Source: Nakazawaea peltata | Taxonomy: Eukaryota; Ascomycota; Pichiomycetes; Alaninales; Pachysolenaceae | NCBI GenBank assembly: GCA_001599355.1 | Contig: BCGQ01000010.1 | Location: 310,001 to 374,000 of the forward strand | Direction: 5' to 3' | Length of the DNA stretch: 64,000 bases | Shown here: piece after piece, positions 1-64,000 of the stretch | Numbering within the stretch: position 1 is the first letter of the stretch | How the letters are laid out: each line of letters begins with the position of its first letter | Notes under the pieces: generated by a model | Databases searched by the model: none | What the model saw: the letters and a program-made list of their open reading frames with translations, nothing else | What the model was told of the DNA's origin: nothing | Program-made: the position numbers and the translations under genes

Positions 1-251
1 TGTCTTCTTGGACTTGAGAAGGGGGACTGGATGCGTCCTGAGGAAGATCTGCGTAACGACAACCTTCTGCTGTATTGACTGCTTAAGCGCCCTTGTCTGG
101 TCAATAAACCAGGAGAGCAAGTACAGTTGTTGCAGGGTCTGAAGGAGCCTGAGGAACGACGGGTGGCGATACCTGGACGGGCTGAAGCGTGGGTGGTGTT
201 ACCGCCCAAAGAGTACATTGAGGGACGAGCAGTAATTCCTTGATGCGACAT
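1..251 (-). CDS. 5' end of an unknown gene running off the left edge
   Basis: An ATG at 251 opens a minus-strand frame that stays open for 83 codons to the window edge with no stop. The predicted start reads MSHQGITARPSMYSLG and is followed by a Ser/Arg-rich, basic, probably disordered stretch with an unusual NNCTCSPG cluster. I do not recognise the family. It could be the regulatory N-terminus of a larger protein. It is divergent to nothing: GCV2 also runs leftward, so the next 525 bases would be its promoter. The open frame alone is modest evidence. Confidence 0.5.
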   Translation of the reverse strand, partial: MSHQGITARPSMYSLGGNTTHASARPGIATRRSSGSFRPCNNCTCSPGLLTRQGRLSSQYSRRLSLRRSSSGRIQSPFSSPRR

Positions 252-380
252 GATTTGGGTGTTTTGAGGGGGGTAGTAAAGGTGTAGTTCTTTTAAATAA
301 GGAGGTTGCTTGGGGGTTGAGGAAAAATTTTCTATAGGCTGGGGGCTGGAGGGAGGGCAGGAAGGGAAAAGAATGAGATG

Positions 381-434
381 GGCGGAGAGTTGGCGGAGAG
401 TAGGTGGAGGGTAGGCGGAGGGTAGGCGGAGAGA
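381..434 (+). repeat. 11-nt tandem repeat, about five units
   Basis: Five imperfect units of consensus GGCGGAGRGTA start at 381, 392, 403, 414 and 425. On the minus strand, which is the coding strand of the left-edge gene, the tract is pyrimidine-rich like the leaders of other genes here. It may be a promoter or leader element of that gene. Confidence 0.8.
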
Positions 435-552
435 GGAAACAACGGGCAGACAGTAAATTGCGCGCAGATTCAAAAGCCGCCGTACGGCTTAAAAAGAAAG
501 GTGGTGTGTTTTTTTAGATGGCCCGATTGGGAATACGGTACACGACCTTTTT

Positions 553-594
553 GGGGGTTAGGTTCTAGGGGGGTTAGGGGGGTTAGGAGGGGGG
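553..594 (+). other. Candidate G-quadruplex with telomere-like GGGGTTA units
   Basis: Four runs of five or six G lie at 553-557, 568-573, 577-582 and 589-594, separated by loops of 10, 3 and 6 bases. This meets the usual pattern for an intramolecular G-quadruplex. The TTAGG/GGGTTA flavour resembles telomeric repeats but it is a short isolated block inside a gene-dense region. Confidence 0.6.
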
Positions 595-776
595 TTAGGA
601 AGGTACTTGGAATGGAGAAAATAAGACGACAATAAGGGGATAAAGGATAAAATATGTATGTGGATCAGTAGCAACATGTCATCCGATCTTTACGTAAATA
701 TCAGTAACTACCTCTCACTACATATCACTCAATCAAGTATATCACACTCTCATTAACTATACCTCTATTACTCTAT

Positions 777-3700
777 TTATTGCCCAGCAACTTCCTCAAC
801 ACTAGGACAAGTACACATCAAATTAATATCTCCATAAGTATCATCAAGTCTTGTCACAGTTGGCCAGCACTTGTTTTGTTTCAAGAACTCCAATGGGAAC
901 AGAGCTTGCTCTCTGGTATAACTTCTAGTCTCCCAATCTTGACTTTGAACAATGTCTTGTAAGTTATGAGGAGCATTATGCAAAATAGCACCGTCGGACT
1001 CTCCAGCCTCGACCAATGCAATTTCTTTTCTGATTTGGATCAAAGAATCGACGAATCTGTTCAACTCAGCAATGTTTTCAGATTCAGTTGGCTCGATCAT
1101 TAAAGTACCTGGGACTGGGAAAGACATAGTTGGAGCATGGAATCCGTAATCTTGTAATCTCTTAGCAACGTCAAGCAGCTCGATACCGATTGGCTTGAAT
1201 TGTCTGATATCAAGGATGAACTCATGTCCACAGTGCTCGGAAGCAGATGGGTTAACAAATAAGACTTTGTAGTGGTCTTTCAATCTGTACATCATGTAGT
1301 TGGCATTTAAGATAGCAATGACAGAAGAATATGGCAAATATTGACCTCCCATCATCTTGATGTAAGCATAACTGATGGTCAAAATGGAGGCGGAACCGAA
1401 ACCGGCAGAACAAATTGGATCAATGGAGTTCTCGGTCTTGTTAGTGGTCTTAGTCAATGGGTGACTTGGTAAGAATTCGGTCAAATGTTTCTTGACACAA
1501 ATTGGTCCAACACCTGGTCCTCCACCACCATGAGGAATAGCAAAAGTCTTATGTAAATTCAAGTGACAAACATCGGCACCTAAATCTCCTGGAGAGGTTA
1601 AACCAACTTGAGCATTCATGTTAGCACCGTCCATGTAGATTTGACCTCCGTTAGCGTGGACAGTGTCGATGGCAGCTCTAATTCCTGGCTCGAATAATCC
1701 ATAAGTGGAAGGATAAGTGATCATAGCAGCGGCCAAGTTGTCCTTGTGCTTCTCAGCCTTCAATTTCAAATCTTCCAAATCTAAAGAACCATCTGGTTGA
1801 CACTTGACAGCAACAACCTTCATACCAGCCATCAGCAGGGACAGAGGGTTGGTTCCGTGAGCAGAAACAGGAATAAGACAGATGTTTCTATGCAGTTCTC
1901 CCTTCTTCTCGAAGTATTGTTTAATGACACTCAAACCAGTGTATTCACCTTGAGCACCAGAGTTTGGTTGTAAAGTAGTAGCGTCGAAACCGGTAATATC
2001 GGCCAAATCAGCTTCTAATTCGTTGATCAACTCATGGTAACCGGCAGCTTGGTCTTCTGGAGCGAAAGGATGAATATCACTGAACTCTGGCCAAGTCAAT
2101 GGGATCATTTCAATGGTAGAGTTCAATTTCATAGTACAAGAACCCAATGGGATCATAGAATGGATCAAAGAGACATCCTTAGCTTGTAAACTGTGCAAAT
2201 ATCTCAACATGGCAGTCTCGGAATGGTGAGTATTGAAGACAGGGTGGGTCAAGAAAGAGTCAGTTCTAGCTAACAGTTCAGAAAGAGCTGGAAGAGAAGA
2301 GAAATCGACAGAAACTTCGGAAGAAGTGGTGAATAAAGAAATTAAGTTGGTAAGATCCTCTGGAGTGACGGTCTCATCAATAGAAAGTTGGACAGTGTTC
2401 AGATCAACCTTGTACAAGTTCAAGTTGTATTGAGCAACAGCAGAAGCCAATAATTGATCCAGAGAAACACCGTGTAATTTAATGCTTAAAGTGTCGAAGA
2501 AAGTGTCGTTTAAGACGGTGTGAGAAGAACCGGAGGAAATGGCTTGCAGTAAAATAGAAGCAAAACCGTGGATACGTTTAGAAATCTCGGTCAAACCATC
2601 TTTACCATGGTAAACTACGTAATTAGCAGCAATATTGGCCAATAACAGTTGCAGGGTACAAATGTTAGAGGTGGCCTTTTCTCTCTTGATATGTTGTTCT
2701 CTAGTTTGTAAAGCTAATCTCATCAGCTCGTTACCAAGACGGTCCTTAGAGATACCTACTAATCTACCAGGCATTTTTCTTTGTAAAGCATCAGTGACGG
2801 CGAAGAAAGCAGCGTGAGGTCCACCGAAACCAAGAGGAACACCGAATCTTTGGGAAGATCCAAATACGATATCGGCACCAAATTCACTAGGAGGTTTCAA
2901 TAAAGTCAACAGCATCAAATCAGAAGCTACACAGAATAAACCCTTCAGCTCATTATGAGTGAAGTCGGCCAATTCTTGAAGTTTGGCAATAGAGGCAACG
3001 GAACCGTCGGTGGCTGGGTATTGAACCATGACACCACATACTTGATCTTTGATCTCGGCGAGCTTGGAAAGGTCGGAACTCAAATCGAGAAAGGCCAATT
3101 CAATACCTTGAGTGTTAGCTCTACTCTTTAATACGGCGATAGTTTGGTCGTGCAACAACTCATCAACAACGAAAACCTTCTTTTTCCCTCTTTTACCTGT
3201 GAACAGCATAATCATCAGTTCCAGCAGTGCGCTTCCCTCATCTAAAAGGGAGGCATTGGCAACTGGCATACCGGTCAAATCGCAGATCACGGTTTGGAAA
3301 TTAAGCAAACTCGTCAATCTACCTTGGGAGACCTCTGGTTGGTATGGAGTATATGAGGTGTACCAACCTGGGTTTTCCAACAAGTTTCTTTGGATGACAG
3401 CAGGTAAGATGGTTCCGTAGTAACCTTTACCGATCAAACTCTTGACTGTCTTGTTCTTAGAGGCGATTTGCTTCATCTTTTGTAACATTTCTTGTTCGGA
3501 ATAACCTTGCGCTGGGGAAATAGATAAAGGTCTTTGGACGAGGACATTTTCTGGGACAGCGGCCTTGATGAAGTCCGAAAGATCTTTGTAGCCCATTTCT
3601 GAGAGCATGGTGGAGACTTCCTCTGGTTGAGGACCAAGATGACGTCTTGGGAAGGAATCTAATCTGGAGGTAGCTTCACTACTATAAATTTTGTTGTAAA

Positions 3701-3779
3701 CTTCAGAAGAGACATTTTTTCTGGCCACCGAGAGGTGGAAATGTCTTCTACTGGTCAAGCTGAGAGTTCTGAAAGACAT
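777..3779 (-). CDS. GCV2: Glycine dehydrogenase (decarboxylating), P protein of the glycine cleavage system
   Basis: This is the pyridoxal-phosphate enzyme that decarboxylates glycine and passes the aminomethyl group to the H protein in mitochondria. The 1000-residue product fits the family (about 1030 in S. cerevisiae). Residues 1-25 are basic and Ser/Leu-rich, a likely mitochondrial presequence. The PLP lysine is Lys744 in [15 protein letters not shown]. Two conserved motifs only read correctly if CTG is Ala: HGTNP-A-S-A-A-MAGM (CTG at 1842-1844, 1836-1838 and 1833-1835) and DEGSA-A-A-E-A-M near 3210-3240. The ATG at 3779 starts the presequence. Upstream lie a CACGTG and a cluster of TGACTCTG boxes, suggesting amino-acid control as for yeast GCV genes. 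Confidence 0.97.
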
Positions 3780-7466: not shown

Positions 7467-10400
7467 ATGTCGATGACCGGGGATGAGGAACAGACCGTGG
7501 GATCTCCTTTTGGGATCCCCTTGGCCGAGTTCAGAGACCTTCACGATCCCAAATCGTTGGTCAAATTACAACAACTTGGGGGTATCGACGCTCTTACAAG
7601 GGACTTAAATACCGATCCACATAATGGGTTACCTGTTGAGGTGACAGATTTCTCACGTCGTCAAGAGATTTATGGTGAGAATAGAATTCCTTCTAAGCCA
7701 GCTAAGACTTTTTGGCAATTATGTTGGGAGTTACTTCAAGACAAGGTGTTGATCATGTTATCGATTGCCCTGTTGGTGTCGTTGCTGTTGGGATTATATG
7801 AGACTTTCGGACAACCTACTGAGTATGATGATGAAGGTAAACCTAAACCAAAGGTTGACTGGGTCGAAGGTGTTGCTATTATGGTGGCCGTTTTGATCGT
7901 TGTACTTGTTGGTGCTGTCAATGATTATCAGAAGGAACGTCAATTTGCTAAATTGAACTCTAAGAAGGAGGATAGAACCGTCATTGTGTACAGAGGTGGT
8001 GATAAAGAAGTGATTAGTGTTTATGATTTGGTTGTCGGAGATGTCATGGCTTTAGAAACCGGTGATATCATCCCAGCTGATGCTATATTGACCGAGGGTC
8101 GTTGTGAATGTGACGAGTCGGCATTGACCGGTGAAACAAACACTATAAAGAAGGTCCCTCTGCATGAGGCTTTGGCCAATTACAAACTTCCAGAAGGTCA
8201 CCAAGGTGAATATGATATCGGAACCAAAGGAGTCGAAGATCCAATGATGATTTCGGGTTCTAAAGTGTTGTCGGGAGTAGGAAGAGCCGTCGTCACTGCT
8301 GTCGGTCCTAACTCGATGAACGGTAGAACTATGATGTCATTGAAGGGGGATGCTGAAGAGACCCCATTGCAACTGAGATTGTCGGCCTTAGCTGATGGTA
8401 TTGCCAAGTTTGGTTTCCTCGCTGCCTTGTTACTTTTCATTGTTCTTTTCATCAGATTCTTATGTCTTCTTCCAAAGGGCCATAGTTATCATCACTTGAC
8501 TCCAAGTGAGAAGGGTGAAAAATTCTTAAACATCATCATTACTGCTATTACCATTATTGTCGTTGCCGTTCCAGAGGGATTACCTCTTGCTGTGACCTTG
8601 CTGTTGCTGTTTGCGACTACCAGAATGTCCAAAGATGGTAACTTGGTCCGTCATTTACGTGCCTGTGAGACTATGGGAGGTGCTACTCTGGTATGTTCCG
8701 ATAAGACAGGTACTTTGACCGAGAACAGAATGAGAGTAGTCAAAGGTATCTTTGGAGACGTAGAATTCGATGACACTGTCACTTCGATGGTATCCGCAGA
8801 GGAGGTCATCAACGACAAGAAGATTTCTACTGGGTTATCGGAGACAATTGTACAAAATATCACCATCAACTCGTCTCTGTTCGAGAATAAACAACCTGAA
8901 GAAGAACTGGCAGTTGCTCTGCCAGCTAAGAAGTCATGGTTCTCTTTCGGAACAGACGAACTGCCTGCTCCTGTAGTAATTACCGAGCCATATGTCGGAT
9001 CTAAAACTGAAACTGCTTTATTAATCTTATTGAACGATGCTTTCCATACCTTCAATGAGAAATCGTTGGAATCTTGGAGACAGCATTACAAATCTGATAT
9101 TGTCCAAGTCATTCCATTTGAGAGTTCTCGTAAATGGGGTGGTGTTATCATCAAGCAAGCATCTGGTTATAGATTTTATATCAAGGGAGCTTCGGAATTG
9201 GTATTTTCCCGTTGTAATTCTCGTTCTAAGAGTGATGGTACTATTGTGCCAGTCGATCTGGAGTTACGTTCTCGTATCGATGATCGTATTGAGGGGTACC
9301 TGAACCAACTGTTAAGAACTTTGTCTATTGCTCATCGTGATTTCCCTGGATTGACTTCCTGGCCTCCAAAAAGCTTGATCGGTGAAGAGGATCCTCATTT
9401 ACTGTCGGCTGAGAAGATCTTTGGGGAACCTGTTGATGCAGACCTGCCTCCACCATCGCCAGTATCTCCAGGAAATGTCCCTTCAATCGTTGTTGAAGAT
9501 GAGAATTCCGTCAAAGGTTCAACTGGGTTCATTTTAGATCTGATCGTAGCTATTCAAGACCCATTGAGACTGGGTGTACCTGAACTGGTATTGAAATGTC
9601 AACTGGCCGGTGTCACTGTTAGAATGGTCACCGGTGATAACCTTACTACTGCCAAACTGATCTCCATGGGATGTCATATTTTGACCGAGGAGGACTTGAA
9701 AGATTCGAGACTGTATATGGAGGGACCGGTATTCCGTAAATTGAGTGATCTGGAGCGTTTCGACGTTGTACCACACTTGAGAGTGCTTCTGAGATCCTCT
9801 CCAGACGACAAACGTGTTCTTGTAAAGACCTTGAAAGATATGGGAGAAGTTGTAGCTGTTACCGGAGATGGTACCAATGATGCCCCACTGTTAAAATTGG
9901 CAGATGTCGGGTTTTCTATGGGTATTGCCGGTACCGAAGTAGCCAGAGAGCTGTCTGATATCATTTTGATGACCGACGACTTCACTCTGATTGTAAATGC
10001 CATCAAATGGGGTAGAACTATTCTGATTTCTATCAGAAAATTCATCCAATTCCAATTGACTGTCAATGTTACTGCTGTTGTGTTGACTTTTGTTAGTGCT
10101 GTGGCTTCTAGTGATGGAGAATCGGTCTTGACTGCCGTCCAATTGTTATGGGTTAACTTAATTATGGATACTTTAGCTGCTTTGGCCTTGGCTACCGATA
10201 AACCAGACGAATCTTTCTTGAAAATGAAACCTGCCGGTAGACATAGACCTTTAATTACTGTTTCTATGTGGAAAATGATCATGGGTCAACTGATAATTCA
10301 ACTTGTGATCACCTTTGTCTTACATTTTGCTGGTGATAAGATCTTCTTCTCTTCAGGTCATGTCTCTGATCATAATTTGACCCAATTATCAGCCATGACT

Positions 10401-11144
10401 TTCAATACTTTCGTTTGGTTACAATTCTTCTGTTTCTTTGTGGCCAGAAAATTAGACGAAGGTGATGGAATTAGATCTATCAGAGAACGTATCTCGTTCA
10501 ATAACTTGAACTTCTTCCTGCATTTATTCAGAAACTATTACTTCATTGTGATTGCCATTATCATTGCAGCATTTGAGATTTTGATCATGTTTGTCGGAGG
10601 AAGTGCCTTCTCTATTGCTCACCAAACTGGGGCTATGTGGGGTACTCTGATCATCTGTGGATTGATTTCTATTCCTGCTGGATGGTTAATCAGAATTATC
10701 CCTGATCATATCGTAGTTAAGTACTTCCCAATGAGACTCTACAAGTTCTTATTGGCCGCCTTGACCTTGTCTTTCTTGAAAAAGAATAAAAAATCTTCTG
10801 AAGATGACTATTCGGAGAAGGATATTGTGATGTCACCATTATTTGAGTTCAGTCCATTTTTGAGGCTGAAGCTGGAGATCATCCTGATGAAGGAAAAAAC
10901 TGCCGCTTCAAGCTCGTATAATCCTATGAAGCTGTATAGAGAATGGCGTTCTAGATCTTCGTCGTCTATTGAGACTGCCAACAGTTCTACGATAGCTGAG
11001 AAGAAGTATCAACAAGTTTATGAAGATTCTGATGGTAACCTTGTACCGATGGGAATTTCGGCTTTGGCAATGGTGCCTACGGTAGTAGGAGGAGCAGTTG
11101 GAGGATGGCATCAGAAGAAGAGTGGGACTCCAGATGCCGAATAG
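7467..11144 (+). CDS. PMC1: Vacuolar Ca2+-transporting P-type ATPase (PMCA type)
   Basis: This 1225-residue P2B ATPase pumps cytosolic Ca2+ into the vacuole (Pmc1 is 1173 residues in S. cerevisiae). The phosphorylated Asp412 sits in CSDKTGTLTENRM. The TGE actuator motif appears as SALTGETNTIKK, the M4 motif as VPEGLPLAVT, and the hinge as VTGDGTNDAPLLK. About ten membrane segments are visible. CTG reads Ala in T-L-A-L-A-FATTR (CTG at 8601 and 8607) and in A-T-A-VCSDKTG (CTG at 8688), restoring invariant residues. The long Ser-rich C-terminus lacks an obvious calmodulin site. ATG at 7467 gives a typical cytosolic N-terminus. Confidence 0.95.
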   Translation: MSMTGDEEQTVGSPFGIPLAEFRDLHDPKSLVKLQQLGGIDALTRDLNTDPHNGLPVEVTDFSRRQEIYGENRIPSKPAKTFWQLCWELLQDKVLIMLSIALLVSLLLGLYETFGQPTEYDDEGKPKPKVDWVEGVAIMVAVLIVVLVGAVNDYQKERQFAKLNSKKEDRTVIVYRGGDKEVISVYDLVVGDVMALETGDIIPADAILTEGRCECDESALTGETNTIKKVPLHEALANYKLPEGHQGEYDIGTKGVEDPMMISGSKVLSGVGRAVVTAVGPNSMNGRTMMSLKGDAEETPLQLRLSALADGIAKFGFLAALLLFIVLFIRFLCLLPKGHSYHHLTPSEKGEKFLNIIITAITIIVVAVPEGLPLAVTLLLLFATTRMSKDGNLVRHLRACETMGGATLVCSDKTGTLTENRMRVVKGIFGDVEFDDTVTSMVSAEEVINDKKISTGLSETIVQNITINSSLFENKQPEEELAVALPAKKSWFSFGTDELPAPVVITEPYVGSKTETALLILLNDAFHTFNEKSLESWRQHYKSDIVQVIPFESSRKWGGVIIKQASGYRFYIKGASELVFSRCNSRSKSDGTIVPVDLELRSRIDDRIEGYLNQLLRTLSIAHRDFPGLTSWPPKSLIGEEDPHLLSAEKIFGEPVDADLPPPSPVSPGNVPSIVVEDENSVKGSTGFILDLIVAIQDPLRLGVPELVLKCQLAGVTVRMVTGDNLTTAKLISMGCHILTEEDLKDSRLYMEGPVFRKLSDLERFDVVPHLRVLLRSSPDDKRVLVKTLKDMGEVVAVTGDGTNDAPLLKLADVGFSMGIAGTEVARELSDIILMTDDFTLIVNAIKWGRTILISIRKFIQFQLTVNVTAVVLTFVSAVASSDGESVLTAVQLLWVNLIMDTLAALALATDKPDESFLKMKPAGRHRPLITVSMWKMIMGQLIIQLVITFVLHFAGDKIFFSSGHVSDHNLTQLSAMTFNTFVWLQFFCFFVARKLDEGDGIRSIRERISFNNLNFFLHLFRNYYFIVIAIIIAAFEILIMFVGGSAFSIAHQTGAMWGTLIICGLISIPAGWLIRIIPDHIVVKYFPMRLYKFLLAALTLSFLKKNKKSSEDDYSEKDIVMSPLFEFSPFLRLKLEIILMKEKTAASSSYNPMKLYREWRSRSSSSIETANSSTIAEKKYQQVYEDSDGNLVPMGISALAMVPTVVGGAVGGWHQKKSGTPDAE

Positions 11145-12507: not shown

Positions 12508-14301
12508 ATGACCAAAAGTATGGTAGAACTCACAGAAGGGTGTCTTTACGGATTGTTTGGCAAAAATCGCACGATCGGTGAGAATCAACCTCTCACTCTT
12601 CAGATTACCAACCTTAAAGTAATTGGAACCGAGCAAGGAAACAGAGCAAGATGTATCTTATTGGATGGTGAGTACACCGTCAATGGAGTATTAAACATCT
12701 CTTGTTATGATGCCGCCCAAGTTCAAGGTGTCCAGAAGTCCAGTATCGTCAAGTTATTGAACTATAGTGTTCAAAAAATGTCCAATAAGAGAGTCATCGT
12801 TGTCGATGAGTTGCAAGTTTTGGAGCCAACCGCCGCCAGATACACCGATAAACCAACTCCGATTATCGATCAATACTTTGCTAGTCATCCTGAAGAAGAT
12901 GGACTTGAAAGTGGTGATGCTTCTGCTTCTCTGCTGCCTCTGTCAGTTGCTCTGTCAGCTTCTCCTTCCACCACCGATGTCAAGAAGAGAGAAACTCGTC
13001 CTAATCTTTACGCCATCGACCAGTTGTCTCCATACCAAAACAACTGGACCATCAAGGCCAGAGTCTCTTTCAAATCCGACATCAGAACTTGGACTAACCA
13101 AAGAGGTGAAGGTAAATTGTTCAACGTTAACTTTTTGGATGAGACCAATGAGATCAGAGCCACTGCTTTCAACGATGCTGCTGAGAAATTCTACGATTTG
13201 TTGACCGAGGGTAAAGTTTACTACGTATCCAAAGCTCGTATTCAACAATCCAAACCTCAGTTCTCCGGTTTGAGTCATCCTTACGAATTACAATTCGACA
13301 GAGACACCGAAGTTGAGGAATGTGAGGACCTGTCAGACGTTCCAAAATTGAATTTCAACTTTGTCAAGTTGAACAAGATCCAAGATCTGGAACCAAATGC
13401 TGTAGTTGATGTTGTTGGTGTCTTGAAGGAAGTCAACCCTCTGTTCCAGCTTGTTGCTAAGGCCACCGGTAGACCATTTGATAGACGTGATATCATGATT
13501 GTCGACGAATCTCAATTTGCCGTCAATGTTGGTCTTTGGAACAAAGCTGCTTTGGATTTCAATTTACCTGTTGGTTCTATTATTGCTGTCAAGGGAGCTA
13601 AGATCCAAGATTTCGGTGGAAGAAGTTTGTCTTTGACCCAATCAGCCACTATTGTTCCAAACCCAGACATTCCAGAACTGTTCCAATTGAAGGGTTGGTA
13701 TGATAAGCAAGGTATTAACGAGCAATTCAAGTCCTTGAAAGTAGAACTGGGTACCTCTTCTAATGGTGTTGGAAACATCAGAGAAAGAAAGCTTATTGCC
13801 GAGCTGCAAAATGAGAACTTGGGTATGAATGACAAACCAGACTACTTCTCCATCAAAGCTCATATCAGTTTCGTTAGAACCGAGAATTGGAGTTATCCTG
13901 CTTGTCCTACCGAAGGATGTAATAAGAAGGTTCTTGAACAACCAGATGGTACTTGGAGATGTGAGAAAGACGATAAGAACTTTGAGGCACCAAAACACCG
14001 TTTCATTACCTCGATCACCGTCATGGACGAGTCTGGTCAATTATGGTTGACCGTCTTCAATGACGATATGGAGAAAATGTTAGGAGGTATCACAGCTAAT
14101 GATATCTTTGCTAGTGGAAAACCAGGAGCTCATTTCTTCCAAAAGTTACAACAACAAGAGTATAACTTCAGAGTCAGAGCCAGACAAGAAAACTACAACG
14201 GTAACGTAAGAATTAGATATACCTTAGCTGGTGTCGAAGCCGTTGATTTCAATGAAGAAATCAACGTTTTAGGTGAGAAGTTGAATGCAATGATGCCTTG
14301 A
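12508..14301 (+). CDS. RFA1: Replication protein A large subunit (RPA70)
   Basis: This is the large subunit of the single-stranded DNA binding heterotrimer used in replication, repair and recombination. Its 597 residues compare with 621 in S. cerevisiae. It has an N-terminal OB domain, a linker, DBD-A starting near YAIDQLSPYQNNWTIKARVS, DBD-B, and DBD-C with a zinc ribbon. CTG fits Ala in NPDIPE-A-FQLKGWYD (13678) and IAE-A-QNENLG (13804). The zinc ribbon is odd: Cys466, Cys471 and Cys485 are present with canonical spacing, but the fourth position (488) is Asp (GAC at 13969-13971). Either zinc is bound atypically or a neighbour substitutes. ATG 12508 is used; MTKSM offers a second Met four codons later. 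Confidence 0.97.
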   Translation: MTKSMVELTEGCLYGLFGKNRTIGENQPLTLQITNLKVIGTEQGNRARCILLDGEYTVNGVLNISCYDAAQVQGVQKSSIVKLLNYSVQKMSNKRVIVVDELQVLEPTAARYTDKPTPIIDQYFASHPEEDGLESGDASASLLPLSVALSASPSTTDVKKRETRPNLYAIDQLSPYQNNWTIKARVSFKSDIRTWTNQRGEGKLFNVNFLDETNEIRATAFNDAAEKFYDLLTEGKVYYVSKARIQQSKPQFSGLSHPYELQFDRDTEVEECEDLSDVPKLNFNFVKLNKIQDLEPNAVVDVVGVLKEVNPLFQLVAKATGRPFDRRDIMIVDESQFAVNVGLWNKAALDFNLPVGSIIAVKGAKIQDFGGRSLSLTQSATIVPNPDIPELFQLKGWYDKQGINEQFKSLKVELGTSSNGVGNIRERKLIAELQNENLGMNDKPDYFSIKAHISFVRTENWSYPACPTEGCNKKVLEQPDGTWRCEKDDKNFEAPKHRFITSITVMDESGQLWLTVFNDDMEKMLGGITANDIFASGKPGAHFFQKLQQQEYNFRVRARQENYNGNVRIRYTLAGVEAVDFNEEINVLGEKLNAMMP

Positions 14302-17775: not shown

Positions 17776-20214
<2,439 letters not shown>

Positions 20215-38871: not shown

Positions 38872-39804
38872 ATGTATGGACTCAGACTGCTTTGGAGAGC
38901 TCCTAGAGTGTCTGGACGCAGATTGTTATCACAGACAGGGGTTAGACTCACGACAAACCCAGATCAAACCAAACTGGAGCATTTGGAGTTCTTGAAAAAA
39001 TACTACACCCAAGATTTCATCGATGCCATCACAACGACAGAGCAAGTAGTGGATCCAAAGAAATGGGATGAACGTAAATTGAATCATTTGGAGTTTGCTC
39101 CTCCATATTTAGACGATTTCTCCAAATTGGACCCATTCTGGGATTATAAAAAGACCCCACAAGAAGACTATACCACTCCACATCAACCGGTGCCAAAGAT
39201 CATCCCACCGGGTATTCTGCTGCAAGATTCTGGAAACTTGTCACCAAAGAGAATGCTTGCCAGAGAGTTGTCGTTATTAACTGGGTTAAACGAGAGATAT
39301 ATTTCACAATTGCAATTCAAAACCCTTGTCGTGAAGATGGTATCCAATCAAACTAAGAACGGTAAGGTTCCAACTTTCTATGCTTTGGTTGCCGTTGGTG
39401 ATCAAAATGGTATGATTGGTTTAGGTGAAGGTAAGGATAAAGTCGAAGTACTGTTACTGATCAAGAAACTGCATTGGAATGCTGTCAAGAATTTGACCTA
39501 TGTTCCTCGTTTGGAAGACAGAACTATCTTTGGTGATATGAAATACAAATATCATTCCACTTTGGTGCATTTGAACTCTGCTCCTTCCGGTTTCGGTTTG
39601 AGAGTCAACCATGTTATCTTTGAGATGTGTGAATTGGCCGGTATTAAAGATCTCGGTGGTAAAGTCTTCAGATCTAGAAACCAAATGAACGTCCTGAAGC
39701 TGACATTTGAAATGTTAACTAGACACCAAAGAACTATCGAAGAATTGGCAAAGGAGAGAGGTAAGAAGATTGTCGACTTGAAGAAGGTGTACTACTCTGT
39801 CTAA
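38872..39804 (+). CDS. MRPS5: Mitochondrial ribosomal protein uS5m
   Basis: This 310-residue small-subunit mitoribosomal protein compares with 307 in S. cerevisiae. The N-terminus MYGLRLLWRAPRVSGRRLL is a typical cleavable presequence. The S5 double-stranded-RNA-binding fold begins near FKTLVVKMVSNQTKNGK and contains FYALVAVGDQNGMIGLGEGK; the S5 C-terminal domain has SAPSGFGLRVNHVIFEM. It is convergent with the J-protein gene (49-base gap). Confidence 0.94.
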   Translation: MYGLRLLWRAPRVSGRRLLSQTGVRLTTNPDQTKLEHLEFLKKYYTQDFIDAITTTEQVVDPKKWDERKLNHLEFAPPYLDDFSKLDPFWDYKKTPQEDYTTPHQPVPKIIPPGILLQDSGNLSPKRMLARELSLLTGLNERYISQLQFKTLVVKMVSNQTKNGKVPTFYALVAVGDQNGMIGLGEGKDKVEVLLLIKKLHWNAVKNLTYVPRLEDRTIFGDMKYKYHSTLVHLNSAPSGFGLRVNHVIFEMCELAGIKDLGGKVFRSRNQMNVLKLTFEMLTRHQRTIEELAKERGKKIVDLKKVYYSV

Positions 39805-39853: not shown

Positions 39854-41299
39854 TTAGGTTCTCTTGTTCTTTTTAGTTTTGGCATCAGCTACCAATTCTT
39901 CAAAGACACGTACTTCTTCATCTTCAGCCTCTGTACGTTCAGCATTCAAGAAGACTTCACCGATCAACTTCAACAGCTGAGCTCTTTCACGCTTCTTCTC
40001 CGACGATATCGAACTATCACCCAAGACATTATCACATACTGCTTTCAAAGTGGAGGTGATTTCAAGTCTTGAAGCATTCCACAGAGACAGTAAGATTTGT
40101 CCGATCAAGTACTGTTGTAATTGCAGGATATCTTCTTCTGTAGGCATTGGTTTAGACAGATCTTCTTCTTCTAATTTCTTCAGTTTAAGTTGCTCTTCAG
40201 TTAATGGGCCGTGGTCTTCTCCAAGAGCTTCAGGTGCAACTTCAGGAGCACTTTCCAGAGCACCTTCCAGAGCACCTTCAGTTTCTGTCGAAACTTCAGG
40301 TTTCACATCCAGATCTTTTTTCTCTTCTGCCTCCAGTTGCAGCTTCTCTTGTTCCCTCTTCAACATACGTTCTCTTCTTTCATTCAACTCATCCAACTCC
40401 TCTAATGTCCTCTGCAGATCAAGTGCAGAACTAATAGTCCTAAATGTATCCCCCACAGTATTCATCTTCATCTTTACAGACCCCCACATACCTCCAACTC
40501 CCAAGAATTTCTGGTTCTTCAAATATATATCTCCTTTGGAGTAATAAATATGACCAATTGTATGCAAAATCTCCAAACCAAAACTCTGCATCTTCAACTC
40601 ATTCAGTTGTTCTCTCAGGATCTGGACAAATGACTCGGTGACATCCTTCAGTTTATCAGTTTCGGTCCATAACGAGATCTTGCCGATTAATTTTTTAGTC
40701 AACAGCTCTTCTTTCTCCTTCTTTTCCAGCATAAGTTGTTCGTTATACTTATCTAATTCTTCTTGCTTCCTCTTTTCCAACTCTTTCTCTTGCTTCTTCT
40801 GTATTTCTTCTATAGTGAGACCCTCATATTCTTCGGTAGATGCAATCATTAATTGAGAGAGTTTATTATTGAGATCCAGTTCTAAAGACTCCAGTGTCAG
40901 AGGTGTATCACTTTCAGAACTGTTCTGTTGTGGTGTATCATAAGTAGCATGAATTTCGGTCGCCTTCGTCAACTCTTTCAACATAGTTAACTCTCCAATA
41001 TAATCCAAGAACAGTTCACCTCCAAAGATCATAGCGAAGAACTCGTTAGGATCTTCGAACCCCTCCTTAGGCACAGCATCCTCTTTACCATAAATGTCAT
41101 ATCTCTTCCTTAATGCATCGTCACTTAATACTTGGTACAGTTCACCAATTGCCTTGAAGCGCTCAGCCAGTTCTGGATCGTCTGGGTTCTTATCCGGGTG
41201 GTGAATGATGGCTTTTTTTCTATAAGCTTTTTTGATTTCATTACTTGAGGCGTCTACTGAGACTCCCAAGACGTCATAATAAGACGTGTCTACTACCAT
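39854..41299 (-). CDS. J-domain protein of the CAJ1/DJP1 family
   Basis: This is a type III Hsp40 of 481 residues. The J domain (6-75) has [20 protein letters not shown] and the HPD motif in [13 protein letters not shown] at 41138 makes IGE-A-YQVLSD, the family consensus. The Caj1/Djp1 X domain follows ([17 protein letters not shown]), then a charged coiled coil. The C-terminal part ([16 protein letters not shown] and [14 protein letters not shown]) looks closer to Djp1, the cytosolic chaperone for peroxisomal and mitochondrial protein import, than to Caj1. The Lys/Glu-rich middle is longer than in either S. cerevisiae protein. ATG at 41299. Confidence 0.88.
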
Positions 41300-51662: not shown

Positions 51663-53459
51663 ATGCAAGACGACCATTATCATGTGCTAGGACTTCAGCG
51701 CTTTGCAAGTCTGAACGAGATCAAGAAGTCTTATAGACGGCTTCTGTTGCAGTACCACCCTGATAAAAATAAAGCGGCGGGTGCTGAAGAAAGATTCAAA
51801 AAAATCCATGAAAGTTACAAAGTGTTATCGGATGCGGGTGAGAAGTCACTGTATGATATGAAATTGAGGTCGTCTTCCTCCTCTACTGTGAGATCTACTA
51901 CCACATCTTCTACCGCCCGCACCAATTTCAATCCAAAGGCGACTAATAATTCTTTTGCTGGATCTCCAAGTCAAAGCTATAGAAATAGGAATTTTGATCA
52001 TCTCTTTTCGAAACAGAACAGTTCATTCCGTGAGTCACCTTCCTCTAAATTTCATTATTCAAACTTTGGATCGAGTCCAAGTAAACCGCGACTGACACCA
52101 GTGGATCCAGAAAGAAGAGAGAACCCTTATCGGACACTGTTCTCTAGAAGAAGTGCATCGGGTCATAACACAAGAGCTCAAACACTGAGTCAGAATGATG
52201 GTTCCTCACCTAATGTCAGCGTAGAAATTGAAGATAGTAGTGATGAAGATGATGATACTAAATATGAAGATCTGAAACCTATGCCTAGTGTGAATACACG
52301 AAGGACTCGTGGAAGTACAGATCTTCCAGATTTATCTGGTGAGGGTAAGGAAGAAGATCCAATTGTGTTGGATGAGACAGATACTGACACTAAAAATAAT
52401 GGAGGAGAACCATCTGAGCCATCGTCTGCTAATGTTGAAAGCTCTGCTAGTGCTCCATCCTCAGCAAGCTCATCCAATCCTAGACCTTCAAGGACTAAAA
52501 GATCTAGTGGTCCATCTCTTCAGCAATCTAAAAGACAAAGATATACACCAGCAGAGAGAACTCCAAATGCTCCAAGAATGAAGGGACCAAGTGGCCGTAT
52601 GAATAGAACACTGATGGAAGAAGATGCCGAGACTTCAAGTAGTACAGACCCAATATTCAATGTCTCTGACTTTGCTAAAACTTCTCCGTTTACAAAAAAT
52701 TATGGAGATATCTCTATGGAAGATGTAGGGGAGTCAATTAATAGTATTCCTGCGAGTCCGGGACCTTCCAAAACTCGTACCAGAGTCACTTCTACTAGTG
52801 TCAGATTTGAAAATGGGAAGAGATTCAGACGTTCTAATGACACTTCTTCTAAACTTGCCCATGAACCTGTCAACAGCTTTGCACAGCGATTCACAAAACC
52901 CGTTCAAGAGAATCCTCCTCAACAATCAATGGGGGAAGACTCAAGAAGAGCTCAATTCACTAACGATCATCCCGATTTCCATTGTACTCTCCCTATATTT
53001 TATGATTCTGCAAAGGCCATCCACAAGATCTCGCTTGGAGATCTCTTGAAAGCTCAATTCGAGTTAATTCCTCCCTCTCCACCAATGTTAGAAAGAGCTT
53101 TCATGACACCGACCGAATTCCGCCAATTACTTACGGCCTTCTACCTGTACGAAGAACACTTCAAAGTATACCAAACCAGTTATCTCTCCTATATGAAAAT
53201 CCGAGTCGAACTGGACGTGTTCCACATGAAAAACATCCTCGGATATCACAGCATCACTGAAAGTTCCGTGTCTCGTGACCTGAATATCGACCTTCAAAAT
53301 TTGAAATTGTATAAACAGGTAGCAGATGTCGATACTCGGATCACTCTGATGTATCATCAAGTCTTAGCTGAGCATTCATCGGCATTGGACAAGTTTGGTT
53401 CGATATGTAAAGTGTTCTCCAAACCCGTTCCTGATTCCGACTACGATAGTGACGATTAA
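51663..53459 (+). CDS. J-domain protein with a long disordered region and a conserved-looking C-terminus
   Basis: This 598-residue protein has an N-terminal J domain (1-70) with YHVLGLQRFASLNEIKKSY and the HPD motif in LLQYHPDKNKAAGAEERF. Residues 75-430 are Ser/Thr/Arg-rich and disordered, with an acidic SUMO-interaction-like stretch (SVEIEDSSDEDDDT and PIVLDETDTD) and basic clusters suggesting a nuclear location. The C-terminal 150 residues form a helical domain ending CKVFSKPVPDSDYDSDD. I cannot name the family with confidence; fission-yeast Mug184/Mug185-type J-proteins are one possibility. An MCB box and HSE-like repeats lie upstream. Confidence 0.8.
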   Translation: MQDDHYHVLGLQRFASLNEIKKSYRRLLLQYHPDKNKAAGAEERFKKIHESYKVLSDAGEKSLYDMKLRSSSSSTVRSTTTSSTARTNFNPKATNNSFAGSPSQSYRNRNFDHLFSKQNSSFRESPSSKFHYSNFGSSPSKPRLTPVDPERRENPYRTLFSRRSASGHNTRAQTLSQNDGSSPNVSVEIEDSSDEDDDTKYEDLKPMPSVNTRRTRGSTDLPDLSGEGKEEDPIVLDETDTDTKNNGGEPSEPSSANVESSASAPSSASSSNPRPSRTKRSSGPSLQQSKRQRYTPAERTPNAPRMKGPSGRMNRTLMEEDAETSSSTDPIFNVSDFAKTSPFTKNYGDISMEDVGESINSIPASPGPSKTRTRVTSTSVRFENGKRFRRSNDTSSKLAHEPVNSFAQRFTKPVQENPPQQSMGEDSRRAQFTNDHPDFHCTLPIFYDSAKAIHKISLGDLLKAQFELIPPSPPMLERAFMTPTEFRQLLTAFYLYEEHFKVYQTSYLSYMKIRVELDVFHMKNILGYHSITESSVSRDLNIDLQNLKLYKQVADVDTRITLMYHQVLAEHSSALDKFGSICKVFSKPVPDSDYDSDD

Positions 53460-56181: not shown

Positions 56182-57009
56182 TCAAACCGTTACCTTCTCT
56201 ACTGTGGTCTCAGAGGCATCCAATGTGTCTTCGATGTCTTCTTTGACTTTTGTCTCTGTTTGAGCTACTGAAGTTTCTTGGAGCGAGAGATCTAAGCTTT
56301 CATCACTGGCATCAATATCTTTGTCTTCTGTGTCATCATGGCGGAACACTCTAAATCTAAGTAACCAAATACCTTGACTAATGAAAATTCCCAACTCCAT
56401 GACACCAACAATGGCATATAATATTATTCCCATGATATCAATCTTTCCTGAACAACCAAGTGACAGAGCGCTGAAAACAGCTCCACTGAAATCCATCAGT
56501 AAGAAGATGAAATTGATTCCAACAACTCTTCCTTGTCTCTTTGCAAGCTCGAAATAAGGAGGAATTAAACCAACGGCCAATAAAAGAGACGCAATACCAC
56601 CGAAGATCATGGCTGGCCATTCAAGACCTTTTTCCAAATACAATTTCTTCAATGGGATGATAAAGGCTATTTCCAATGCCAAAGAAATACCCAAGAATAA
56701 CCCACCGAGGAGGTAAATCTTATTCTTCTTCATCGAAATAGGAGGGTAATATAAGGATTGTAACCATGAAATAAAACATAACGTGGTGAACAATTGAGGT
56801 TGTACCTGCAATGCAATGGCACTGTCAGTCGAACAAAGATAAATTGAAAATGGAACACCACAAGCAGACCATAAAAACAACATAATTGGTGGTAATCCCT
56901 CACAGTTCTTCCTTCTGTAATTGTAGATTACTTGAGGAATCAACTGCACCGACCATAATACTGTACCAATGGTACTTAAAATATTAACAAGACTTGAATC
57001 GTGGGCCAT
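56182..57009 (-). CDS. PQ-loop repeat membrane protein
   Basis: From ATG 57009 (MAHDSSLVNILSTIG) the product has 275 residues; 27 extra bases upstream need a TTG start. Seven membrane segments are visible. PQ-loop 1 reads SVQLIPQVIYNYRRKNCEGL; the second loop is degenerate (VGLIPPYFELAKRQGRVVGI). The C-terminal 60 residues are acidic and cytosolic-looking. The family includes lysosomal/vacuolar cystine and cationic amino-acid exporters (cystinosin, Ypq1-3), but this one is not clearly a Ypq protein. It is convergent with the AIG2-like gene (78-base gap). Confidence 0.85.
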   Translation of the reverse strand: MAHDSSLVNILSTIGTVLWSVQLIPQVIYNYRRKNCEGLPPIMLFLWSACGVPFSIYLCSTDSAIALQVQPQLFTTLCFISWLQSLYYPPISMKKNKIYLLGGLFLGISLALEIAFIIPLKKLYLEKGLEWPAMIFGGIASLLLAVGLIPPYFELAKRQGRVVGINFIFLLMDFSGAVFSALSLGCSGKIDIMGIILYAIVGVMELGIFISQGIWLLRFRVFRHDDTEDKDIDASDESLDLSLQETSVAQTETKVKEDIEDTLDASETTVEKVTV

Positions 57010-60633: not shown

Positions 60634-61467
60634 TCATCTTGCTAAGATCCAAGTCACCAATTCTTGAATGTTGACGATTTCTTTGCAACTAACTAGGAAA
60701 AGACCAATATCACGGTTCAATTCTATGATCTCTTCTTCGTTATGTTGTATAATTATGCTGGGTTTCTTTTTTAATTCCCGCTGAATTCCTCCTGAGGGAG
60801 ATGACGAGGTAGGATCGGCTGTAGCAACAGTATTGATATGAGGACTGGTTACTTGTCGCTTAAGAGTAAATCTATCACCGGGTTCTTGTTCTAATCCAAT
60901 GAATCTTTTAAGTAACCCGATTTTTCCATCCGCTTGCAAAAGAGAAGTTGTACTATCAGTTTTGGGTAACTGCGATGACGTTCCTGACGAAATACCGAGT
61001 CCTGTGCCCTCAATAGTTGATAAATTCCTGACATAGTCAACATCCTCTAGTAAATCAATTTTGTTTGCGACAATCAGAATTGGTACATGTCGAGATTTTT
61101 CATCTTGTAATAATTCCAATAGCTTTCGTCTGGCCCGCGGTAACGTCATCGTATCACTTAAATCTATCACATAAACTATTATATCCGCAGTCTCTTGATA
61201 ATACTCTCTCCATATCGAATTCTGAAATCTTTCCTGTCCTGATAAGTCAAATACTTTGAGTAATAAGTTATTCTTAGTAAAATACTTGAAATCCATCCCA
61301 ATGGTGGGTATCGTGTCCTCCTGGAATTCTTTCCCCATTAGCACATCACAAAGCGATGTTTTACCACTGTTGGAAAAGCCTAGTATCACAATGTCAAGTT
61401 CTTGTTGATAAAACAAGTGTAATACCGAGTAATACAAGTTCTTGAATAACTTGTACAACGAATACAT
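60634..61467 (-). CDS. Arf-like small GTPase (Arl8-like) with a large insertion
   Basis: From ATG 61467 (MYSLYKLFKNLYYSVL) the product has 277 residues, against about 185 for a normal Arf-like protein. G1 is LGFSNSGKTSL, the switch I Thr region is TIPTIGMDFKYF, switch II is FDLSGQERFQNSIW, and G4 is ANKIDLLED. About 90 residues rich in Ser/Thr/Gln separate G4 from a late G5-like FLVSCKE, so the insert sits in the C-terminal half. No myristoylation Gly is present; an amphipathic aromatic N-terminus could insert into membranes as in Arl8. Subfamily is inferred from overall pattern only. Confidence 0.82.
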   Translation of the reverse strand: MYSLYKLFKNLYYSVLHLFYQQELDIVILGFSNSGKTSLCDVLMGKEFQEDTIPTIGMDFKYFTKNNLLLKVFDLSGQERFQNSIWREYYQETADIIVYVIDLSDTMTLPRARRKLLELLQDEKSRHVPILIVANKIDLLEDVDYVRNLSTIEGTGLGISSGTSSQLPKTDSTTSLLQADGKIGLLKRFIGLEQEPGDRFTLKRQVTSPHINTVATADPTSSSPSGGIQRELKKKPSIIIQHNEEEIIELNRDIGLFLVSCKEIVNIQELVTWILAR

Positions 61468-61857
61468 CGCAAAAGGTATCTTCACCACTTATCTCTTATC
61501 CCCTTGCTTGCTCTCTTTAAACTAAAACTCTTGTTTATTTTCTGCTTTCCTCGGGGGTGCTTTTTTTTCCTTTCGAAGCACGTCAATCAAGCTTGATTAA
61601 TTGATATTTTGCTAATGGTAACCCCCCAACACTACAAGAAAGGTGATAGTTATTTAATTTCTATTGAGTAAATATAAGAAGCCATAATTAAATTACTGTT
61701 GAAGCAGTAAGATGCAAAAAAAGTATATAAGTTTGAGTAAGAAATATTGCAAAATCAGCTGTTTATGAGGAGAGACCCTTGGAACATGACAGAGTCTTAC
61801 CACACAGCTTTTGAAGCGTAGTAGAAGAGAAATAAATTAGAGAGAATTGATCTATGT
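61468..61857. other. Spacer between GTPase gene and PIR gene
   Basis: This 390-base region upstream of the GTPase gene and downstream of the PIR gene holds a short T run near 61561-61570. I see no gene or distinct motif in it. Confidence 0.6.
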
Positions 61858-62715
61858 TTAACAGTCGATCAACTCAACAACATTGAACTTAACAGGAACA
61901 CATTGAGCACCAATGGACTCATCGTACAAGTTGTAGAAGGTACCACTCAAACATTGGTAGAAAAGATCGTTGTCACCAAGGGCCAAGTTTCCTTCTTCAG
62001 TGATAGACCATCCAACAGCGTAGATAGCACCGGCTTGTGGGACTGGGTCGAATTGGAATTGGTGGTTGGCGACAATGGATCCGATTCTACCAGCAGAGTC
62101 GGTCAAAATGGAGTTCTTCAAAGTCATGGACAAGGTACCTTCGGCGTTACAAGCGACCTGGTCGACAGAGTCGGAACCGGAGGAAGCGGAGTCGGTAGCT
62201 TGGACTTGACCGTCAGTGATTTGGGAAGCACCTGCAGCGGTGGCAGTGGTAGCTTGGATTTGACCGTCACCGATTTGAGTAACAGCATTGGCGGTAGCGG
62301 TGGTAGCTTGGATTTGACCATCACCAATTTGGGTGACTACTTGCAGAGTAGCAGTAGTAGCTTGAATTTGACCGTCACCAATTTGAGAGACAACTTCAGC
62401 AGTCTTCTTGGTGGCAGTAGTAGCTTGGATTTGACCGTCGCCAATTTGAGTGACTACTTGCAGAGTAGCAGTGGTAGCTTGAATTTGACCATCACCAATT
62501 TGAGTGACAACATCTCTCTTATCCAAAGAAGCGGAAGCAGATGTGACTGGAGAAATGGCAATAGCGAAAGAAGCAGTGTAGTCAGTGACAGCACCACTTG
62601 GAGCAGTACCACTTGGGGTCAAAGTAGACCATGGTTCAGAAGGAACGTAAGCAGCATAAGCTTGAGAGCTGGTCAAACCAAGGGCCAATAAAGCGGAAAC
62701 TAATTTGTATTGCAT
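61858..62715 (-). CDS. PIR-family cell-wall protein
   Basis: This is a covalently linked cell-wall protein of 285 residues. The signal peptide is residues 1-21 (ending AYA), a Kex2 site LDKR ends at residue 67, and six PIR repeats of type [13 protein letters not shown] span residues 71-175 (the sixth, [12 protein letters not shown], is divergent). The C-terminal domain has the four conserved cysteines (Cys189, YQC, AQC and the terminal DC) and the family motif [23 protein letters not shown] repeats attach to beta-1,3-glucan through an alkali-labile Gln ester. In two repeats the spacer has CTG where the others have GCN alanine, in line with CTG as Ala. Confidence 0.95.
62191..62505 (-). repeat. 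PIR tandem repeats within the coding sequence
   Basis: Six in-frame units of about 14-20 codons sit within the PIR gene. The GC-balanced repeats also open a 262-codon antisense frame (61903-62691) that is an artefact of this repetition. Confidence 0.85.
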
Positions 62716-63657
62716 TATGATTGTTGCTAAAACTTTGAAATGTTTGGATCTATCAGTTTCTTGTATTAGTCGTTGATATTTATTCTAATTAAACTTAGTC
62801 AAAGACAGTTATTTGAAGTCATATTTATATTGTCTCAAGTTGATTCCACGAAATCAATCAACCTCACCCCTAACTTATTAATAGAAACAACTTAGAGCGT
62901 ATGCGAGTAATTTAACCCTCGCAAACAATACATTTACAACTCTAATAATCTATATATAGCCCATTTACAGTTTACCAGAGGGTTTCCTCGAAGTTGGCTA
63001 AACTTTGAGTGCAAATAATTAGCGCACAATAGACTAAATTCAATATCTTCTTCGGGCCCACCCCAGTCAGGGGTTAAAGGCTTGCAAAATGCTTCGATCT
63101 GCAAGACTTCATGCGCGCAAGCTTATTTCTCGCAAACTTTTTTTTAGAAGTGAACGGTTTAGCCGGGGCTTCCCTTGCGCGAGCTATTGTATTTTGAGGT
63201 GGAGGCTGGTGGCTTGAGGGAGCGATTTCAGCGTATATTTCCCAATGGAGCAAAATGTCAACAAAGATCATTACATTTCTTAATTAGGATATGTAATGAC
63301 GACATTAAAACGGTGTCGGAATTTGAGGGGGCTTGATTTAATGATCCGAGATGTGGAGTGCATTGCAGGTAAATCAATACCAAGCCATCTGACAACCATC
63401 AGTTCTTGGTTGATCTAGGTCCCCTAATGCTTCATCTTACAGTTTTAACGGGCTAGTTTGTCTTGGCTTAGACACACCTTCTCTTTAAAAGCCTCTGATT
63501 CTCAACCGTTGCCAGGATATACTACAGTTCGATTGCATTGCATGGCAGGACATTGACTAAATTCAAAAATAGAAACATGCTACAGCAGTGAAATCAACTG
63601 AAATCATGTACAAAAACTTATATTTATTAAGGGAAATCAGTTTGCACCATCACAGAA
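62716..63657. other. PIR promoter and STI1 3' region
   Basis: This 942-base spacer has an imperfect hairpin (ACCAAG at 63379-63384 pairing with CTTGGT at 63405-63410, with inner CTGA/TCAG). No ORF longer than chance is believable. Nothing else stands out. Confidence 0.55.
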
Positions 63658-64000
63658 TTAACGAGTTCTAATAATACCAGCAGCAACTAAGATGTTTACC
63701 TTCTTTGCAATATCCGGGTTCTTCATATGTTCTTGCAAGGCAGCTGGATTATCTCTGGCTTGTTGCAAAATGCTATTCATGATTGGGTCTTGTAAAATCT
63801 TGACAACTTCTGGATCTCTTGAAGCTCTTTCCAAAGTTTGTTCTTCGGTTTCACCAGCGGTAGATGAGAATCTTTGAGACATGGCCTTGTAGTTCAATTG
63901 ATCAATTTCCATGATAGACTTCTCGTCGTTCAAAGCAACAGCCTTTTCTCTGGCATCACTCAAGGTTTCAACAGCCTGGCTGAAATCTCTAGTCAGAATT
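63658..64000 (-). CDS. STI1: Hsp90 co-chaperone Sti1/Hop, C-terminal part (runs off the right edge)
   Basis: This is the last 113 codons of the TPR co-chaperone that links Hsp70 and Hsp90. It includes the end of TPR2B (AVETLSDAREKAVALND, EIDQLNYKAMSQRF) and the DP2 domain: ASRDPEVVKILQDPIMNSIL, ARDNPAALQEHMKNPDIAKK and the terminal ILVAAGIIRTR, matching Sti1 almost residue for residue. The frame is open to the edge, so the true start lies beyond the window. The CTG at the edge fits Ala (QIA in Sti1). Confidence 0.96.
   Translation of the reverse strand, partial: ILTRDFSQAVETLSDAREKAVALNDEKSIMEIDQLNYKAMSQRFSSTAGETEEQTLERASRDPEVVKILQDPIMNSILQQARDNPAALQEHMKNPDIAKKVNILVAAGIIRTR

What the first reader, a model, noticed from the sequence alone, without database searches (positions are those of the whole stretch)
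1..64000. The window uses CUG as alanine (CUG-Ala nuclear code)
CTG codons sit exactly where family motifs have alanine. Alkaline phosphatase: ITD-A-TP-A-A-FSSH, GAT-A-FSCA, DH-A-GHSNDP-A-AQV, VL-A-YDK (CTG at 36151, 36142, 36139, 36289, 35701, 35680, 35656). GCV2: HGTNP-A-S-A-A-MAGM (1842, 1836, 1833). PMC1: TL-A-L-A-FATTR and AT-A-VCSDKTG (8601, 8607, 8688). RFA1: PE-A-FQLKGW and AE-A-QNENLG (13678, 13804). J-protein: GE-A-YQVLSD (41138). Reading Leu or Ser breaks all of these; in the motifs I checked no CTG fell on an invariant Leu. The reassignment is known from Pachysolen and relatives, so it identifies the lineage, and standard-code annotation of this contig is wrong at every CTG.
Basis: partly seen in the sequence, partly recalled or inferred. 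Interest (0 to 1): 0.95.

Follow-up and report, generated by a model that had tools for sequence, protein, structure and literature searches.

The report
Yeast contig reading CUG as alanine
This stretch of yeast nuclear DNA spells alanine with the codon CUG, which nearly all other organisms read as leucine; the change is real here, but it is already known from one order of yeasts.

Summary
All 16 coordinates named are in-frame CTG codons. I aligned seven window proteins with bacterial homologs and scored all 20 residues at 67 CTG columns: alanine +78.7 bits, serine second at -31.2, leucine eleventh at -104.7. The same method returns the standard meaning for 47 of 58 other codons, 43 of the 44 with 10 or more columns. 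Of 49 columns at least 90% Ala, 13 are written CTG; of 85 columns at least 70% Leu, none is. Summed Pfam scores rank Ala > Ser > Leu. CTG supplies 339 of 1157 alanine codons in 30 ORFs, 29%. The tRNA test could not be run: no tRNA gene was found in the window and no genome is held. CUG-Ala (NCBI code 26) is known from Pachysolen, Nakazawaea and Peterozyma, now order Alaninales (PMC5951914, PMC11540330). The contig most likely comes from that order. Real, already known; species not identified.

The parts
777..3779 (-). GCV2 (glycine decarboxylase P-protein), 19 CTG codons; Ala-dominated columns include CTG at 3225-3227, 2724-2726, 2652-2654, 1842-1844, 1836-1838, 900-902
   Evidence: Ala in 78, 73, 79, 79, 78 and 69 of 80 bacterial homologs at codons 185, 352, 376, 646, 648, 960
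7467..11144 (+). PMC1-type Ca2+-ATPase, 35 CTG codons; Ala-dominated columns include CTG at 8607-8609, 9789-9791, 9888-9890
   Evidence: Ala 13 of 14, 21 of 25, 24 of 25 at codons 381, 775, 808; Pfam
34954..36537 (-). Alkaline phosphatase (PHO8-like; gene name recalled), 17 CTG codons; Ala-dominated columns include CTG at 36289-36291, 36151-36153, 36142-36144
   Evidence: Ala 26, 29 and 25 of 30 at codons 83, 129, 132; Pfam score 340.1 (Ala), 325.2 (Ser), 304.5 (Leu)
38872..39804 (+). Ribosomal protein S5 family (probably mitochondrial), 9 CTG codons; CTG at 39457-39459 and 39700-39702 on invariant Ala
   Evidence: Ala 25 of 25 at codons 196 and 277; Pfam
39854..41299 (-). J-protein with DnaJ-X domain, 23 CTG codons; CTG at 41138-41140 and 41168-41170
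   Evidence: Ala 30 of 30 at codon 54, 27 of 30 at codon 44; Pfam
51663..53459 (+). Second J-domain protein, 12 CTG codons; CTG at 51744-51746 on invariant Ala
   Evidence: Ala 30 of 30 at codon 28; Pfam
12508..14301 (+). RFA1 (replication protein A large subunit), 10 CTG codons
26347..30777 (-). DNA topoisomerase II, 18 CTG codons
22511..23365 (+). TFA2 (TFIIE beta), 14 CTG codons
14366..16600 (-). Kap122-like importin, 26 CTG codons
   Evidence: count; best solved-structure match Kap122
17776..19155 (-). TEF1 (eEF1A): no CTG, 33 unambiguous GCN alanine codons
61858..62715 (-). PIR cell-wall protein: CTG alternates with GCC, GCT and one AAG at the same position of its internal repeat

Best explanation
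The window is nuclear DNA of a budding yeast of the CUG-Ala clade (order Alaninales), which translates CUG as alanine (NCBI table 26). Shown here: CTG codons occupy alanine positions much as ordinary GCN codons do and avoid leucine-conserved positions, while the other common codons keep their standard meanings. Inferred from published work on the clade: a tRNA of alanine identity with anticodon CAG, formed by an anticodon change in one member of a tRNA-Ala gene family, decodes CUG; this is possible because alanyl-tRNA synthetase needs no particular anticodon bases. Inferred by me: the ancestral tRNA-Leu(CAG) is gone, and leucine is carried mainly by UUG and UUA.
For: Of the 121 CTGs in seven proteins, 70 lie in columns with at least 5 bacterial homologs; 67 remain after dropping the GCV2 stretch that served as an Ala-coded search pattern. 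Scores: A +78.7, S -31.2, T -56.0, L -104.7 bits. Every leave-one-protein-out set keeps A on top, e.g. +46.6 against -25.3 without GCV2. p(Ala) exceeds p(Leu) in 54 of 67 columns and p(Ser) in 58 of 67. Of the 44 other codons with 10 or more columns, 43 return the standard meaning. Mean column make-up at CTG sites is A 0.388, L 0.032, S 0.064, close to GCN sites (0.459, 0.034, 0.061) and unlike TTR sites (A 0.044, L 0.464). Pfam: 27 families found under all three codes sum to 3445.5 (Ala), 3361.2 (Ser), 3273.3 (Leu) bits; A beats L in 22, ties 1, loses 4; A beats S in 18, ties 5, loses 4 (summed). PIR repeat copies use CTG where other copies use GCC or GCT. Yeast-type gene content: PIR repeats, TFA2, RPA34, LSO1/2-like. 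The literature gives the Ala clade as Nakazawaea, Peterozyma and Pachysolen with a novel CAG tRNA.
Against: No tRNA gene was found in the window and no genome is held, so the decoding tRNA is not seen. Some CTGs sit in columns conserved for something else: of 26 columns at least 70% alike, 21 are Ala, 3 Gly, 1 Val, 1 Lys; PMC1 codon 692 faces Gly in 17 of 17 and codon 853 Tyr or Phe in 25 of 25. Leu is commonest in two weakly conserved CTG columns of 70. Four Pfam families score slightly higher with Leu (REPA_OB_2, tRNA_anti-codon, TFA2_E-tether, Toprim, by 0.1 to 0.7 bits), and RFA1 as a whole shows no preference. In alignments to solved Top2, RPA and TFIIE only 7 of 27 CTG cells face Ala, with 5 V, 4 K, 3 S and 1 L, against 37 of 69 for GCN, so CTG there sits at more variable places. 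No mass spectrometry. The species is not identified.
Confidence: 0.97

Rival explanations
1. CUG is serine, as in the Candida (Ser1) or Saccharomycopsis/Ascoidea (Ser2) clades; Ala and Ser columns overlap, so the signal could be misread.
For: Ser is the second-best meaning at CTG columns, and four of 27 Pfam families score higher with Ser than with Ala.
Against: Ser scores -31.2 against +78.7 for Ala; p(Ala) > p(Ser) in 58 of 67 columns; 0 of 29 columns at least 70% Ser are CTG while 19 of 108 columns at least 70% Ala are. The common Ser codons give Ser as best in the same test (TCT 52.1, AGT 21.2, TCC 19.8).
Confidence: 0.01
2. CUG is ordinary leucine and the alanine motifs are chance or selective reading.
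Against: Leu ranks eleventh of 20 at CTG columns (-104.7); 0 of 85 columns at least 70% Leu are CTG, where TTG takes 36 and TTA 26; none of 2000 random column sets came near the observed Ala score.
Confidence: 0.005
3. CUG is mainly alanine but decoded ambiguously, with a minor share of Leu or Ser, as described for Candida albicans and Ascoidea asiatica.
For: Column statistics cannot see a few per cent of a second residue; the Nature Communications and eLife papers state this limit for mass spectrometry and for Codetta.
Against: Column make-up at CTG shows no more Leu or Ser than at GCN codons (L 0.032 and 0.034; S 0.064 and 0.061).
Confidence: 0.05

Closest known systems
NCBI genetic code 26 (Pachysolen tannophilus nuclear code), CUG-Ala clade / order Alaninales
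   Same: CUG occupies Ala columns; other common codons standard; UUG and UUA are the main Leu codons; yeast gene content
   Different: No difference found. The tRNA, the phylogenetic position and the species could not be tested; window GC is 40.5%, near the 42.3% published for Nakazawaea ambrosiae, which alone identifies nothing.
CUG-Ser1 and CUG-Ser2 yeast clades (code 12)
   Same: Same codon reassigned, in budding yeasts
   Different: Serine reading tested and rejected
Ashbya gossypii mitochondrial CUU/CUA to Ala
   Same: Leu-box codons moved to Ala
   Different: Mitochondrial and other codons; seen only as title and abstract start in a search listing (PMC3874161). Here the CTT/CTC/CTA columns have Leu as commonest residue on average (0.277 over 43 columns)

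Membership tests
CUG-Ala code (NCBI table 26) | CTG codons fall in alanine columns of conserved proteins | tested here: met
   Ala +78.7 bits; 21 of 26 columns at least 70% alike are Ala, or 19 of 24 once the pattern-biased stretch is dropped
CUG-Ala code (NCBI table 26) | All other sense codons keep standard meanings | tested here: met
   47 of 58 other codons return the standard residue, a few of them by little (TCG -0.3, TCA 0.1, ACA 1.0 bits). Of the 11 misses ten have 8 columns or fewer; CTT (33 columns) gives Ile 18.2 over Leu 13.9, which I take as noise because 5 of the 85 columns at least 70% Leu are CTT. CCC and CGA had no column.
CUG-Ala code (NCBI table 26) | tRNA with anticodon CAG and alanine identity (G3:U70, recalled), no tRNA-Leu(CAG) | not testable with these tools
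   No tRNA found in the window; no genome held
CUG-Ala code (NCBI table 26) | Ala at CUG sites in peptides (LC-MS/MS) | not testable with these tools
   No proteomics at hand
Order Alaninales (Pachysolen, Nakazawaea, Peterozyma) | Phylogenetic position within the clade | not tested
   The genome collections offered are prokaryotic, viral and plasmid, so no yeast relatives were fetched; inferred from the code alone, which the papers I saw report for this order
CUG-Ser clades (NCBI table 12) | CTG codons fall in serine columns | tested here: not met
   Ser -31.2 bits; 0 of 29 columns at least 70% Ser are CTG

The most novel reading that the evidence does not exclude
The contig belongs to a yeast outside Alaninales that reached CUG = Ala independently, which would be a fourth reassignment of this codon in budding yeasts. 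Nothing here excludes it because no phylogeny could be made.
Probability: 0.02. Interest if true: 0.8.

Novelty: already known. Interest (0 to 1): 0.3.

Why it matters
A sense-codon change in a nuclear code is rare, so a contig that carries it must be annotated with table 26: 339 residues in the 30 ORFs counted (29 of them hold at least one CTG) would otherwise be given as Leu. The case also shows that 64 kb suffice to infer the code with a wide margin. Scientifically it confirms known biology (reported for P. tannophilus in 2016 and for the clade in 2018, as stated in PMC5951914) and adds at most one more genome region.

Tried and rejected
Tried without result: tRNA search in the window by ARAGORN in bacterial mode and intron mode and by Rfam at gathering thresholds, all empty. 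Topoisomerase II relatives in viral contigs: 3 pattern matches, none a relative. RraA-like protein: only 5 homologs passed and no CTG column had 5, so its 6 CTGs were not scored. Kap122 alignment was not tallied because the match is weak.

Considered and rejected: CUG = Ser, CUG = Leu (see rivals). Also that CTT is altered as well: the Ile over Leu margin is small, CTT fills 5 Leu-conserved columns, and CTT/CTC/CTA face Leu in 11 of 23 solved-structure cells. Also that the CTG share falls with codon optimality across genes: with TEF1 and one gene of few alanines left out, Spearman -0.26, p 0.19 over 28 genes, so not shown.

Dropped before counts: 2 antisense ORFs of 32; GCV2 codons 186-194, part of the Ala-coded search pattern, with 3 CTGs (two Ala columns and one, 192, with Leu commonest); columns with fewer than 5 homologs; hits under 22% identity or 50 columns. 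Three Pfam families not found under all three codes were left out of the sum (named in the full report). In one search I used 13 of the alignment blocks printed. Left out there: 4gfh residues 557-757 and beyond 858 (no CTG in the part printed; CTG 386 of the blocks used faces a gap); 4gnx outside 270-466 (no CTG); 6i52 beyond 526 (no CTG); 8rk2 before residue 289, which holds CTG 275 (facing Asp) and CTGs 142, 143, 145, 149 in a poorly aligned linker; and the rows of 6zy5, 7yq8, 1jmc, 1l1o, 5fmf and of PMC1, PHO8 and GCV2. CTG positions were rechecked.
Full report
What was checked. Each lies in an in-frame CTG codon of the gene stated. Thirty ORFs of at least 150 aa contain 339 CTG codons, 21.8 per thousand, more than CTT (270), CTC (113) or CTA (24). 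The gene set is that of a budding yeast nucleus: glycine decarboxylase, PMC1-type Ca-ATPase, RFA1, TFA2, topoisomerase II, PIR cell-wall protein, RPA34, LSO-like and others (some gene names recalled). The 30 ORFs end in TAA, TAG or TGA (17, 5 and 8).

The test. I masked CTG as X, aligned seven proteins (GCV2, PMC1, PHO8, an RraA-like protein, an S5 ribosomal protein, two J-proteins) to ORFs from 215 bacterial loci, and collected the residues facing each codon. The GCV2 homologs were the 80 loci kept of 586 confirmed (a capped list), found with an Ala-coded query. The others were fetched by Pfam family, which carries no assumption about CTG. One of the six peptide patterns covered CTG sites, so GCV2 codons 186-194 were dropped. 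Of 121 CTGs in the seven proteins, 70 had at least 5 homologs and 67 were scored. The score is the summed log ratio of column probability to background, with BLOSUM62 pseudocounts.

The result. Ala +78.7 bits, Ser -31.2, Thr -56.0, Val -66.4, Gly -69.7, Leu -104.7. Each of the six proteins with scorable columns gives Ala as best by itself, and leaving out any one protein keeps Ala best. 2000 random sets of 67 other columns gave at most -17.1 for Ala. Run on every other sense codon, each masked in turn, the method returns the standard residue for 47 of 58, and for 43 of the 44 with at least 10 columns. The one exception among these is CTT, Ile 18.2 against Leu 13.9; a few right answers are narrow (TCG -0.3, TCA 0.1, ACA 1.0). 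Read the other way round, conserved columns show which codons the yeast uses: of 49 columns at least 90% Ala, 16 are GCT, 13 CTG, 9 GCC, 3 GCA, 8 other; of 46 columns at least 90% Leu and 85 at least 70% Leu, none is CTG; of 29 columns at least 70% Ser, none is CTG. CTG columns average A 0.388, L 0.032, S 0.064, close to GCN columns (0.459, 0.034, 0.061).

Further support. Ten proteins scanned against Pfam under codes 26, 1 and 12 give summed scores of 3445.5, 3273.3 and 3361.2 bits over 27 families found under all three (sums). Left out of the sum: Importin_rep_3 (Ala 23.9, Ser 22.2, not found with Leu), Cys_Met_Meta_PP (Ala 27.2, Ser 27.9, not found with Leu) and Hydrolase_3 (20.5, Ala only). 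In the PIR protein, the residue after the repeat unit QATTAT is CTG in two copies, GCC and GCT in one each, AAG in one; a sixth copy diverges. The two CTG copies may be one duplication.

What speaks against or limits it. Of 26 CTG columns at least 70% alike, 21 are Ala, 3 Gly, 1 Val, 1 Lys; PMC1 853 is a Tyr/Phe column. Leu is the commonest residue in 2 of 70 CTG columns, both weakly conserved. RFA1 shows no Pfam preference, and four families score 0.1 to 0.7 bits higher with Leu. In printed alignments to solved structures, which used the Leu reading of the query, 7 of 27 CTG cells face Ala, 5 Val, 4 Lys, 3 Ser, 1 Leu; GCN codons face Ala in 37 of 69 (blocks left out are listed under Tried and rejected). 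CTG alanines there sit at more variable places than GCN alanines; in the bacterial comparison the difference is slight.

How it works. Shown: the meaning of the codon. Inferred: a tRNA-Ala with anticodon CAG. Krassowski et al. 2018 (PMC5951914; I read the abstract, Results part 1 of 2, the bioinformatics methods, and passages) report five clades. CUG-Ala comprises Nakazawaea, Peterozyma and Pachysolen; each altered clade uses a novel CAG tRNA made by anticodon mutation of a tRNA-Ala or tRNA-Ser gene; and AlaRS and SerRS alone need no particular anticodon bases. A 2024 codon-usage paper (PMC11540330, passages) names the order Alaninales; the taxonomy places Nakazawaea in it. A screen of 462 yeasts by Codetta (PMC8629427, passages) found 453 in line with the known distribution. 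The two discovery papers of 2016 are not held; I know them from citations and memory.

What is not known. No tRNA was found in the window and no genome is held, so the tRNA test and the placement of the species could not be made. GC of 40.5% is compatible with Nakazawaea (N. ambrosiae 42.3%, PMC10106607 Table 2) but identifies nothing.

Usage. CTG supplies 339 of 1157 Ala codons (29%), but none in TEF1, which has 33 GCN codons; at the share of the other genes the chance of none would be 7e-6 if codons were independent. Across the other genes the trend with codon optimality is not significant. I saw no published figure for the CUG share in this clade: a 2019 survey left its five species out (PMC6701816, passages), and from the listings I read no paper that gave one; I did not read the 2024 survey's tables.

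Verdict.

Noticed in passing
17776-19155 (TEF1): The eEF1A gene has no CTG beside 33 GCN alanine codons, against a 30% CTG share in the other genes; CUG may be a poorly supplied Ala codon avoided in highly expressed genes.
   Followed up: partly
18100-18937: Nine single N bases, all at third codon positions of TEF1 (ATN, GAN, GCN, TCN, ACN, ATN, GCN, GTN, ATN), as if two near-identical gene copies or alleles were merged in the assembly. Two more N lie at 34535 and 34538.
   Followed up: partly
45789-47543: A PAF67-family gene (Pfam PF10255, 429.9 bits), that is eIF3 subunit l; from memory, Saccharomyces cerevisiae lacks this subunit.
   Followed up: no
window, CTT codons: CTT columns score Ile slightly above Leu (18.2 against 13.9 bits over 33 columns); taken as noise, but CTT sits at Ile/Val-tolerant places more than TTR does.
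   Followed up: partly
12508-14301, 22511-23365, 26347-30777: CTG alanines face Ala in solved-structure homologs less often (7 of 27) than GCN alanines do (37 of 69): the reassigned codon sits at more variable positions.
   Followed up: partly
61858-62715: PIR cell-wall protein with six PIR repeat stretches by Pfam; CTG and GCN interchange between repeat copies.
   Followed up: yes
54499-55368 and 56182-57009: Two neighbouring PQ-loop membrane proteins on the same strand.
   Followed up: no
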